From Dehalococcoidia bacterium (GTDB lineage: Bacteria > Chloroflexota > Dehalococcoidia > Tepidiformales > Tepidiformaceae): a stretch of DNA of 48,426 bases. Positions within the stretch are counted from its first letter, which is position 1. Each line of letters begins with the position of its first letter. Under the pieces are notes generated by a model. The model was not told the origin of the DNA. It made no database searches and worked only from the letters and a program-made list of their open reading frames with translations. Positions 31,190 through 34,143 of the stretch are shown piece after piece. Location: the NCBI GenBank assembly GCA_022826585.1, contig JAJDUR010000095.1, forward strand, positions 1 to 48,426, read 5' to 3'. A program made the position numbers and the translations under genes.

Positions 31190-31606
31190 TCAGCGGGACA
31201 GTTCCGCGAGGGCGTTGGCCGGGGTGAGGGTGGGGATGGGTGACTGTGCGAAGTCGCGCTCGTTCCGCGTGACGATGAACTGTGCGTCGCAGGCCTGCGC
31301 AGCCGCGATCTGCATCGCGTCCTCGAAGTCGGCCATGGGCAGGGTCAGGGCATAGCGGAGGTCGTCGGTGCTGGTGGCAGCGATCTGTGCGAACTCGAGG
31401 AGGCTGGTGATGAAGGCTCGGGCAATCTCCGGGCTAGCCTGCCGGCGGACGTTGTAGAAGGTGTTGGAGGCCGTGTGCCAGGCAATGAACAGGTCCTGCC
31501 TCTCCTGCTGAAGGCGGTCCACCAAGCGGCGAGACGAGCCCACGTGGGGCTCCCGGTCGAGCGCGACGTCGATGAGCACGTCCGAGTCGACGAGCCACCT
31601 AGCCAT
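31190..31606 (-). CDS. vapC: PIN-domain ribonuclease toxin (VapC-like)
   Basis: The 138-residue PIN protein starts MARWLVDSDVLIDV with acidic residues Asp7 and Asp9 and continues with ADFEDAMQIAAA and FIVTRNERDF, the remaining acidic positions of a PIN active site. PIN toxins cut specific RNAs, often tRNA or rRNA. Its start overlaps the antitoxin stop by eight bases, the usual toxin-antitoxin coupling. Its target is unknown. A palindromic operator upstream of the pair supports autoregulation. Confidence 0.88.
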   Translation of the reverse strand: MARWLVDSDVLIDVALDREPHVGSSRRLVDRLQQERQDLFIAWHTASNTFYNVRRQASPEIARAFITSLLEFAQIAATSTDDLRYALTLPMADFEDAMQIAAAQACDAQFIVTRNERDFAQSPIPTLTPANALAELSR

Positions 31607-31961
31607 ACTTTTCCTGTAGGTGCTCGTACCGCAGGTCGTCCAGTTCTTCGTCCGTCAGCGGCTTTTCCGGCTTCGCCTGACCAAGCAACCGTGCTCCGAT
31701 GGGGAGGGTTTTGTCGTTGAGGCGAGCCCATCGTTCTTCCGGTGTCTCCTCGTCGAGGCCAGCCGCGATGGCGGCTGTGCGGGCTGCAGCCGCCTCCCAA
31801 TCCACCCTGTCCGCGGATGTTGGCTCGTCGACCCCCAACGCCCCGCGGAGCGCATCTTCGATCAGGGACGAAAGGGAGACCCCCCTGGCACGGGCGTACT
31901 CCTTGGCGCGCGGGAGCACCTCGGAGTCAATGGTGACGGTGAGCTTGGTCTTGGTCTGCAT
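31599..31961 (-). CDS. vapB: DUF6364-type antitoxin (ribbon-helix-helix)
   Basis: The 120-residue protein has an N-terminal ribbon-helix-helix DNA-binding segment (KTKLTVTIDSEVLPRAKEYARARGVSLSSLIEDAL), followed by an acidic, Ala-rich C-terminal tail that would wrap and inhibit the toxin. It precedes vapC with an eight-base overlap. DUF6364 proteins are a known antitoxin family. It should bind the 15-base inverted repeat at 31975-32013 just upstream of its start and repress the pair. Confidence 0.85.
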   Translation of the reverse strand: MQTKTKLTVTIDSEVLPRAKEYARARGVSLSSLIEDALRGALGVDEPTSADRVDWEAAAARTAAIAAGLDEETPEERWARLNDKTLPIGARLLGQAKPEKPLTDEELDDLRYEHLQEKYG

Positions 31962-31974
31962 GGGCGGCCCCCCG

Positions 31975-32013
31975 AGATACGTATACGTACTATAGCACTA
32001 CGTATACGTATCT
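31975..32013. promoter_or_regulatory. Palindromic operator/promoter of the vapBC pair
   Basis: AGATACGTATACGTA (31975-31989) and TACGTATACGTATCT (31999-32013) are perfect 15-base inverted repeats with a nine-base spacer. The repeat is itself built from TACGTATA words. On the minus strand the spacer contributes TATAGT, a good -10 hexamer, so a bound repressor would cover the promoter. The ATG of the antitoxin lies 13 bases further on. It is very AT-rich against the surrounding sequence. Confidence 0.85.
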
Positions 32014-32015
32014 TT

Positions 32016-32780
32016 CTAACGCTGCGTGCTCAGATCCCGGAGCTCCCGCAGACGGCGCCGGGCGTAGTCGTCCTCGATCTGCCAGCAGACGGCGACCTCC
32101 CAGGCGACCGACGCTCGCCGCGCACGCTGGAACTCGTCGTCGGTGAGCCCCGCCGACTCCGCGTCGGGCAGCGCGCCAAGGTCGAGGAGGGGTGAGTCGA
32201 CACGCGCCTCGTCCCAGTCGAGGAGGCCGACGGTGTCGCCATCGATGCGGACGTTGGTGGGTGAGGGGTCGCCGTGGATGACGGTCGGGTTGCGCTCGGG
32301 GAGTTCCCTCCAGGCGGAGCGGCACAGTTCCGTGTCCTCGGGCGGGAGCAGCGACATGTCGACATCGCCGCCGACGTCGGTGGTGAGCAACTCCCGGGCC
32401 GTGCGGAAGCCGGGACGCTGGGGCCACGCCGGCAGCAGGCCGTGGAGCCGCTGGAGTTCATCGCCGACGAGCGCTGCGTCGCGCCGGCCTTCCGGCTCCC
32501 TCCCCTCCAGGAAGGAGAGAACGACAAGCCCGCCCGCTCGGCGCTCACCCGAACGGGTCAGGACCGGGAGGGGAACGGCGAAACCCTGGTCGTGCAGGGC
32601 TTGGAGCAGGTCGAGCTCCCAGTCGAGAACCTCGGCGCTGCGGGCGTTCTGGCGGGCGACGCAAGGCTCGCCCCGAAGCCGGATCGTCCAGACGCGATTA
32701 CGCAGGCCGCTCACCTCGGCTTCGACCTCAACCTCGCCCCACCGTTCGAGCGCTTGCTGAAGTTCGTTGCTTGCGGTCAT
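32016..32780 (-). CDS. APH-family phosphotransferase (aminoglycoside/choline kinase-like)
   Basis: From the ATG at 32780 the 254-residue protein has the APH active site VIHGDPSPTNV (His169, Asp171, Asn176) and LLDWDEA (Asp188, the metal-binding residue). The N-terminal lobe (about 20-110) is short. APH-fold kinases phosphorylate aminoglycosides, homoserine, choline, fructosamine or other small substrates, and nothing here tells which. It has no neighbours in an operon: the toxin-antitoxin operator begins beyond its stop and the divergent enoyl-CoA hydratase gene lies upstream. Confidence 0.82.
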   Translation of the reverse strand: MTASNELQQALERWGEVEVEAEVSGLRNRVWTIRLRGEPCVARQNARSAEVLDWELDLLQALHDQGFAVPLPVLTRSGERRAGGLVVLSFLEGREPEGRRDAALVGDELQRLHGLLPAWPQRPGFRTARELLTTDVGGDVDMSLLPPEDTELCRSAWRELPERNPTVIHGDPSPTNVRIDGDTVGLLDWDEARVDSPLLDLGALPDAESAGLTDDEFQRARRASVAWEVAVCWQIEDDYARRRLRELRDLSTQR

Positions 32781-33681: not shown

Positions 33682-34143
33682 ATGCCACCAGCACCCGGCG
33701 ATAAGGCCCCGGCCTTCACGCTCATGAACAAGGACCGGGAGGAAGTCACGCTCGACTCCTTCCCGGGCAAGAACATCGTCCTGGCGTTCTATCCGCTCGC
33801 CTTCACCGGCGGGTGAACGTCGGAGATGATCGCCTTCCGCACGCACACGGATGCGTTCGCGGAGGCAAACGCCCAGGTCCTGGGCGTGAGCGTTGATTCC
33901 TTCGCCGCCGTCGGCGAGTTCCAGGAAAAGCTCGGGCTGGAGTTCCCGCTTGTCTCGGACTTCCCGAAGAACCAGGTGGGGCGCGACTACGGCATCTTCA
34001 ACGAGGACTTCGGAATCCATAACCGCGCGACCTTCGTGATCGACAGCGACGGCATCGTGCGAGACGCCTACCTCGAGCCGCGCGACTTCGAGTCGCACGC
34101 TCCGCATGCGCTCGAAGTCCTGCAAGAGCTGAACGGGGGCTAG
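33682..34143 (+). CDS. Selenocysteine-containing peroxiredoxin (UGA at the peroxidatic position)
   Basis: The ATG at 33682 (AAGGAG upstream) opens a 153-codon frame with one internal TGA, codon 45 (33814-33816), before the final TAG. The context is [14 protein letters not shown]; peroxiredoxins have P-x3-T-x2-C here, and UGA replaces exactly that Cys. The rest is intact on both sides (GDKAPAFTL before; [32 protein letters not shown] after). No Cys occurs elsewhere in the protein, so it would be a one-Sec peroxidase. A hairpin with a bulged U lies just downstream. Selenocysteine peroxiredoxins are known in other bacteria; here it is inferred. The selenocysteine machinery genes (selA, selB, selC) are not in the window. 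A mutated pseudogene or a sequence error is the alternative. Confidence 0.85.
33832..33866 (+). promoter_or_regulatory. Candidate bacterial SECIS hairpin of the UGA peroxiredoxin
   Basis: GCCTTCCGC (33832-33840) pairs with GCGGAGGC (33859-33866) over eight base pairs, leaving one bulged U on the 5' side. An inner stem ACGCA/TGCGT (33841-33845 with 33852-33856) closes a six-base loop, CACGGA. The loop starts 30 bases after the UGA. Bulged U, loop G residues and distance fit the general bacterial SECIS plan within coding sequence. The loop is not identical to the classic E. coli one, so SelB binding is inferred. Confidence 0.6.

What the first reader, a model, noticed from the sequence alone, without database searches (positions are those of the whole stretch)
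31975..32013. Perfect 15-base palindromic operator enclosing the -10 box of a vapBC pair
The arms match without a mismatch, each made of TACGTATA-type words, with a TATAGT hexamer lying in the spacer on the minus strand. It sits 13 bases before the antitoxin start and is the most AT-rich short stretch in this part of the window. The layout predicts that dimers on both arms block the promoter, and the repeat nature may permit cooperative binding.
Basis: partly seen in the sequence, partly recalled or inferred. Interest (0 to 1): 0.5.

Follow-up and report, generated by a model that had tools for sequence, protein, structure and literature searches.

The report
Two-box operator of a toxin-antitoxin pair
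A short mirrored DNA sequence in front of a bacterial toxin-antitoxin gene pair is very probably the switch through which the antitoxin turns its own genes down; the switch is of a familiar kind, but its paired layout turns out to be shared by many related bacteria and had no description that we found.

Summary
A perfect 15-nt inverted repeat lies at 31975-32013, the only one of that length (loop up to 30) in the window. Each arm carries the 12-bp palindrome TACGTATACGTA, centres 21 bp (two helical turns) apart, with no other exact copy in the host genome. It precedes a DUF6364/ribbon-helix-helix antitoxin gene that overlaps a PIN_3 (VapC-type) toxin gene.

Five of 9 same-genus genomes have this antitoxin at the locus, and all five carry the exact box pair; two that lack the gene pair have a clean empty site without boxes. 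In the phylum, 32 of 53 loci examined, in 10 families, carry a recognisable pair, 24 at exactly 21 bp.

Refinements: the conserved unit is two GTATAC-centred boxes; perfect 15-nt arms occur in 2 of 32 loci. In 22 of 27 loci outside the genus a -10-like hexamer lies inside box 1; in the window's genus it lies in the spacer.

Best reading: FitAB-like autorepression operator of a type II toxin-antitoxin pair. Binding is untested. New member of a known kind.

The parts
31975..32013 (.). Whole operator: perfect 15-nt inverted repeat with 9-nt spacer
31999..32010 (.). Box 1 (upstream with respect to the vapBC genes): 12-bp palindrome TACGTATACGTA
   Evidence: conserved in relatives
31978..31989 (.). 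Box 2 (nearer the antitoxin start): 12-bp palindrome TACGTATACGTA, centre 21 bp from box 1; the predicted transcription start falls in it
   Evidence: start position inferred from the -10
31989..31994 (-). Predicted -10 hexamer TATAGT, preceded by TGC (extended -10)
   Evidence: only promoter-like site in 400 bp; TGn in 4 of 5 genus members
32013..32018 (-). Weak -35-like hexamer TAGAAA, 18 nt from the -10
31599..31961 (-). [quoted passage not shown]
31190..31606 (-). Toxin, 138 aa, PIN_3 (PF13470, 72.4 bits, cut-off 27); start overlaps the antitoxin end by 8 nt
32016..32780 (-). Upstream neighbour: phosphotransferase of the APH family, stop codon 2 bp from the operator; not part of the module

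Best explanation
The palindrome is the operator of an autoregulated type II toxin-antitoxin operon (DUF6364-type RHH antitoxin, PIN_3 toxin). Each 10-12 bp GTATAC-centred box is bound by one antitoxin RHH dimer. The two dimers sit two helical turns apart, so on the same face of the DNA, and are probably bridged by toxin dimers into one complex, as in FitAB. In the window the two dimers cover the extended -10 (TGC TATAGT) between the boxes and the predicted start site inside box 2, so RNA polymerase cannot open the promoter while antitoxin is plentiful. Shown here: the repeat, its spacing, its conservation, its co-occurrence with the gene pair, and the predicted promoter. Inferred: binding, stoichiometry, cooperativity, repression and the start site.
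For: Perfect repeat, unique in genome. RHH plus PIN_3 pair with overlapping genes. In the genus, 5 of 9 genomes have the exact pair, all five directly before this antitoxin (spacing 21 in four, 19 in one) with -10-like TATAGT/TACAAT/TACAAT/TAGAAT/TACAAT between the boxes. G003 and G004 have the APH neighbour followed at once by uvrC, with no gene pair and no boxes. Class set: 16 of the 19 best-scoring antitoxin loci read have the pair, with a sharp optimum at 21 bp, against 0 of 11 remoter RHH loci. Phylum set, scored with the same box and spacing: 16 of 23 new loci have the pair and all 16 have a PIN_3-like gene; the other 7 have neither. In 12 of 27 non-genus loci TTG stands exactly 17 bp before the TATACT/TATAGT in box 1; no other offset of 90 exceeds 2.
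Against: No binding or transcription data. L076 (G005) has a near-identical RHH N-terminus and a PIN_3-like neighbour but no box pair; L080 and L089 likewise, and L090 among the remoter loci. L081 has boxes but my motif scan found no PIN_3-like ORF within 700 bp downstream. L119 is weak (31 of 500 shuffles do as well), and five class loci have 1 to 14 of 500. Many loci come from a few genera, so they are not independent. The RHH_1 match is marginal, the structure model modest (pLDDT 73.5) and no Foldseek match reaches E 0.001 (best 0.72). No NCBIfam model reaches its cut-off for either protein, and the toxin has no sequence match among solved structures at E up to 1.
Confidence: 0.87

Rival explanations
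1. RNA hairpin: the 15-nt arms act in RNA, as a terminator of the upstream phosphotransferase gene or as a leader structure of the vapBC mRNA.
For: The strand folds well (-26.4 kcal/mol for 71 nt, z -3.5), and 27 of 32 loci have z of -2 or lower against mononucleotide shuffles.
Against: No terminator-like site in 31800-32200. Perfect arms of 13 nt or more occur in 3 of 32 loci; the others have 5-11 nt. In some loci the boxes agree better as direct than as inverted repeats (for example L086 12 against 8 of 14, L116 10 against 7). From the predicted promoter the upstream arm is not transcribed. The preferred 21-bp spacing and the 17-bp TTG offset are DNA-geometry features. Folding energy alone cannot separate the two readings, since GTATAC boxes always pair with each other.
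Confidence: 0.04
2. Operator of some other regulator, not the antitoxin.
For: No binding experiment ties the antitoxin to the site.
Against: The exact palindrome occurs nowhere else in the genome, is absent from the two empty sites, and is tied to this antitoxin family in 10 families.
Confidence: 0.04
3. Autoregulatory site, but the antitoxin activates rather than represses, as reported for Synechocystis VapB15 (passages of PMC5924515).
For: The window promoter has only a weak -35; activation by a VapB is on record.
Against: Boxes overlap the -10 and the predicted start site, a position for repression; in 22 of 32 loci box 1 contains a -10-like hexamer.
Confidence: 0.05

Closest known systems
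FitAB of Neisseria gonorrhoeae (RHH antitoxin, PIN toxin, four heterodimers on a 36-bp operator; passages of reviews PMC3920265 and PMC4803016 and of PMC3384007)
   Same: RHH antitoxin with PIN-domain toxin; two separated binding sites within about 36-39 bp before the genes.
   Different: Different antitoxin (DUF6364) and toxin (PIN_3) families; sites here are GTATAC-centred boxes 21 bp apart; complex stoichiometry untested. FitAB's site sequence was not compared.
YefM-YoeB operator: two palindromes with a TGTACA core, 12 bp centre to centre, one over the -10 (passages of PMC3920265 and PMC4803016)
   Same: Two palindromes with a six-base core at a fixed distance over the promoter, conserved among relatives.
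   Different: [quoted passage not shown] 12 bp instead of 21 bp.
Shigella flexneri VapBC: two operator sites over -10 and -35 (passages of PMC3384007)
   Same: VapC-type toxin, two sites overlapping promoter elements.
   Different: AbrB-type antitoxin rather than RHH.
CopG and Arc repressors (RHH; structure matches 1ea4, 1myl)
   Same: Predicted fold of the N-terminal part, at E-values that are not significant by themselves.
   Different: Not toxin-antitoxin systems (recalled); other operators.

Membership tests
Type II VapBC toxin-antitoxin system | PIN-domain toxin | tested here: met
   PF13470 PIN_3 72.4 bits, cut-off 27; DSDVLID, DFEDAMQ and TRNERDF motifs (their meaning is recalled). No NCBIfam VapC model reaches its cut-off.
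Type II VapBC toxin-antitoxin system | Small antitoxin gene directly before the toxin gene | tested here: met
   Genes overlap by 8 nt, 31599-31606; a PIN_3-like gene also follows in 15 of 16 box-bearing loci of the class set and 16 of 16 of the phylum set
Type II VapBC toxin-antitoxin system | Antitoxin with DNA-binding domain | tested here: met
   RHH_1 20.7 bits, cut-off 20.5; phmmer to PDB antitoxin Rv0298 E 0.0036 and VapB26 E 0.018; helices 16-25 and 30-42 in the model. Marginal scores.
Type II VapBC toxin-antitoxin system | Palindromic operator overlapping the promoter | tested here: met
   promoter is a prediction
Type II VapBC toxin-antitoxin system | Toxin stops growth, antitoxin neutralises it | not testable with these tools
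   needs expression in a laboratory strain
Type II VapBC toxin-antitoxin system | Antitoxin or complex binds the operator and represses | not testable with these tools
   needs gel shift, footprint and reporter
FitAB-type complex on DNA | Two RHH dimers on two sites bridged by toxin into a hetero-octamer | not testable with these tools
   two sites 21 bp apart are shown; stoichiometry is not
DUF6364 (PF19891) | Match above curated cut-off | tested here: met
   49.6 bits, cut-off 27.3

The most novel reading that the evidence does not exclude
DUF6364/PIN_3 modules of Chloroflexota share one operator code: two GTATAC-centred boxes about two helical turns apart, kept across 10 families while promoter and spacer change. 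The commoner layout has the -10 (TATACT) as part of box 1, often with a TTG -35 seventeen bp upstream. In the window's genus box 1 is a perfect palindrome without TATACT, and an extended -10 stands 12 bp further down between the boxes, so the promoter has moved under a fixed operator. Antitoxin genes without a toxin partner (seven loci, all of genus g244) also lack the operator, while three loci of that genus with a toxin have it.
Probability: 0.45. Interest if true: 0.45.

Novelty: new member of a known kind. Interest (0 to 1): 0.32.

Why it matters
It gives DUF6364, a family 'of unknown function' in Pfam with no paper in the library searched, a specific and testable role: the DNA-binding antitoxin of PIN_3 toxins with a defined operator. 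The aligned loci with varied boxes, near-fixed spacing and two promoter layouts are a ready set for testing how two-site cooperativity and promoter position trade off. The general principle, a palindromic autorepression operator over a toxin-antitoxin promoter, is textbook.

Tried and rejected
Hairpin, terminator or leader RNA: see rivals; not supported by arm conservation or promoter position, though folding energy alone does not exclude it.

General repeat: the exact pattern ACGTATACGT-N5-15-ACGTATACGT gave 49 stretches in the species collection and 9 in viral contigs. Four of the 49 are relatives of this locus (L032, L037, L043, L054). Nineteen are Porphyromonas or Porphyromonadaceae pairs and arrays at 22 bp. 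L021 and L026 lie before other RHH-like genes, and L039 before an archaeal gene that I took for RHH by eye but Pfam did not support. L062 has a helix-turn-helix-like frame near by (by eye). For the rest I saw no DNA-binding gene, judging by eye from the first 60 residues printed. So the box pair by itself is not a signature; its place before DUF6364 is.

Plasmid-borne copies: one 46-aa query found nothing in the plasmid collection. PADLOC gave only weak, probably chance DrmD matches. NCBIfam gave nothing above cut-off.

Literature: no paper with DUF6364; TACGTATACGTA only in two papers, unrelated by title; none with ACGTATACGT and antitoxin. Listings were used to choose papers. From papers I saw search listings, starts of abstracts and found passages (PMC3384007, PMC4803016, PMC3920265, PMC2701414, PMC5924515), no whole text. 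The passages of PMC2701414 held nothing on this pair.

Row handling: of 41 matches I read the 30 given as loci; the second matches of G296 and G005, not read in that step, score as well as some of the 19. L098 and L099 had no sensible start in my parser but stayed among the 11 remoter loci. The split into 19 and 11 follows E-value (5.2e-13 and below; 3.9e-9 and above among those with a locus). Of 23 new loci, 21 were scored by script and two (L130, L134) read by eye. For L128 I moved the start codon by 9 nt by hand. The 32 box loci include L119, which is weak.

Full report
What is there. The window carries a perfect 15-nt inverted repeat at 31975-32013 with a 9-nt spacer. It is the only perfect inverted repeat of 15 nt or more with a loop up to 30 in the window; at 13 nt or more there are two, against a shuffle mean of 0.067 and maximum of 1 in 60 shuffles. 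Each arm contains the 12-bp palindrome TACGTATACGTA (31978-31989 and 31999-32010), centres 21 bp apart, and these are the only exact copies in the 2.74-Mb genome. With up to two mismatches only one further match lies in the window. The stretch is one of three places in this 69% GC window with 25 or more A/T in 39.

Genes. On the minus strand, 13 bases after the repeat, starts a 120-aa protein of family DUF6364 (49.6 bits, cut-off 27.3) with a marginal RHH_1 match (20.7 bits, cut-off 20.5). It overlaps by 8 nt a 138-aa PIN_3 protein (72.4 bits, cut-off 27). No NCBIfam model reaches its cut-off for either. By sequence the antitoxin's nearest solved relatives are antitoxin Rv0298 (E 0.0036), VapB26 (0.018) and CopG (0.22); the toxin has none at E up to 1. 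A structure model from five sequences (pLDDT 73.5) has helices at 16-25 and 30-42 after an extended N-terminus, as in RHH proteins. Foldseek ranks CopG first (probability 0.96 but E 0.72), then an unrelated low-probability chain, VapB26 and Arc. The upstream gene is an APH-family phosphotransferase that ends at 32016, and the downstream gene is uvrC.

Promoter. The only promoter-like site in 31800-32200 is on the minus strand: TAGAAA, 18 nt, TATAGT at 31994-31989, with TG before the -10; the shuffle mean is 0.1. No terminator-like site was found. The start site would fall in box 2, near 31982 (inference).

Same genus. Of nine genomes, five have the exact box pair, each directly before an orthologous antitoxin (identity to the window protein 80, 64, 62 and 58% in the four others). 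Spacing is 21 bp in four and 19 in G006, with -10-like TATAGT, TACAAT, TACAAT, TAGAAT and TACAAT between the boxes. TGn precedes the -10 in four of five. Of the four without the pair, G003 and G004 have the same APH gene, and in them its stop is followed at once by the uvrC leader; neither gene pair nor boxes are there. G005 has remoter antitoxin matches elsewhere; two of them (L008/L076 and L014) are followed by a PIN_3-like frame, and the genome has no exact box pair. G008 has neither APH match nor antitoxin match. So at this locus the operator comes and goes with the gene pair. Equal contig lengths link G001, G002, G006 and G007 to records titled Dehalococcoidia or Chloroflexi MAGs; the host lineage is inferred from that.

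Class. A profile search of 393 genomes gave 41 matches, of which 30 came as loci. In the 19 best of these, 16 have a box pair at 19-21 bp within 120 bp upstream. Shuffle counts for these 16 range from 0 to 14 of 500, with eleven at 0. The mean mismatch score has a sharp optimum at 21 bp (4.5; side peaks of about 5.9 at 15 and 27 reflect the 6-bp repetition inside the box; every other distance from 11 to 35 has 7.4 or more). The 11 remoter RHH loci show no pair. Misses among the 19: L076, L080, L089, all three with a PIN_3-like neighbour.

Phylum. The same box and spacing were then applied to a new set: 400 genomes, 23 new loci. Sixteen have the pair at 20-22 bp; 15 of these have 0 of 500 shuffles as good and L119 has 31. 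All 16 are followed by a PIN_3-like gene. The other seven (L123, L129-L134) have neither boxes nor a PIN_3-like ORF in the stretch scanned, L130 and L134 being read by eye. These seven are of one genus (g244), so they count as few events; three loci of the same genus (L126-L128) have both.

Consensus. Over the 32 box loci, 10 families and 11 genera, box 1 is ATACGTATACT and box 2 is ATACGTATACGTA; spacing is 21 bp in 24, 20 in 4, 22 in 3 and 19 in 1. Perfect 15-nt arms are found only in the window's genome and G002. Position 8 of box 1 is T in 22 of 32 loci, all outside the genus, which makes TATACT or TATAGT, a -10-like hexamer. In 12 of the 27 loci outside the genus TTG stands exactly 17 bp before that hexamer, while no other offset among 90 has more than two; three of the twelve are near-identical. 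By my simple promoter score the best site uses the box-1 hexamer in 19 of these 27; in the other 8 it lies elsewhere, among them L084 and L114 with TATAGT and TG in the spacer. So the -10 seems to be part of box 1 in most relatives. In the window's genus position 8 is G, TTG is absent at that offset, and the -10-like hexamer lies 12 bp further on (10 in G006). This is a prediction from sequence; no start site is mapped and no tree was made, so the direction of change is a guess from the majority.

How it works. RHH antitoxins bind short palindromes through a paired beta-strand, and toxin-antitoxin operators usually overlap the promoter (reviews PMC3920265 and PMC4803016, passages). In FitAB, also RHH plus PIN, four heterodimers sit on a 36-bp operator (passages). 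Two boxes two turns apart before an RHH-PIN pair fit that picture. I infer one dimer per box and bridging by toxin; neither is shown. Result: feedback repression.

Other readings. Folding the strand as RNA gives a stable hairpin, and 27 of 32 loci keep a z of -2 or lower, which is expected from two GTATAC boxes. Arm length is not conserved and box 1 is not transcribed from the predicted promoters, so I give an RNA role about 4%. Activation instead of repression is on record for VapB15 of Synechocystis (passages of PMC5924515) and stays possible.

Beyond the phylum. Exact box pairs are rare and mostly unrelated: 49 stretches in the species collection, 19 of them in Porphyromonas or Porphyromonadaceae at 22-bp spacing. 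A Deltaproteobacteria MAG (L021) has three boxes at 12-bp steps just before a probable RHH protein (Pfam hits below cut-off) and a VapC-like frame (by eye), and Streptomyces spongiae (L026) has boxes before an Arc-like protein above cut-off. The same palindrome may have been adopted more than once.

Verdict. It is an ordinary kind of element, in a family not described in the papers searched, with a broader conservation than one window could show.

Noticed in passing
window 33682-34143 (+): Peroxiredoxin (AhpC-TSA, 130 bits when TGA is read through) with an in-frame TGA where the catalytic cysteine is expected (AFTGG-TGA-TSEM; place recalled): probable selenocysteine. The same TGA is seen in 7 of 9 genus members, the window's included (the other two did not fit my search word); tRNA-Sec is over cut-off in 9 of 9 genomes and SelB over cut-off in the own genome. 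The ORF list starts the gene late, at 33826.
   Followed up: partly
L018-L020, L023-L025, L030, L033-L035, L038, L040, L042, L044, L049, L050, L057, L058, L061: Porphyromonas and Porphyromonadaceae genomes hold pairs and short arrays of ACGTATACGT at 22-bp spacing in several places; no RHH-like gene seen beside them by eye.
   Followed up: no
L021:5487-5520: Three ACGTATACGT palindromes at 12-bp steps, 10 bp before a probable RHH antitoxin and a VapC-like frame in a Deltaproteobacteria MAG: a tighter layout of the same box.
   Followed up: partly
L017 (G000:C20), L016, L093, L096: Another small RHH (CopG-like) gene with ATATGGGTA-type repeats just before the start codon in four loci; a PIN-like frame follows in L093 and L096: perhaps a second operator type.
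   Followed up: no
L079 (G296:C32:30368-30749): Two DUF6364-like antitoxin matches in tandem before one PIN_3-like toxin.
   Followed up: no
L080:1501-1896: Antitoxin of G281 with three copies of a PEPPFSERWR-type segment in its C-terminal half, and no recognisable box pair.
   Followed up: no
L123, L129-L134 (genus g244): DUF6364-like genes with neither a PIN_3-like neighbour nor boxes: possible orphan antitoxins that lost both.
   Followed up: partly
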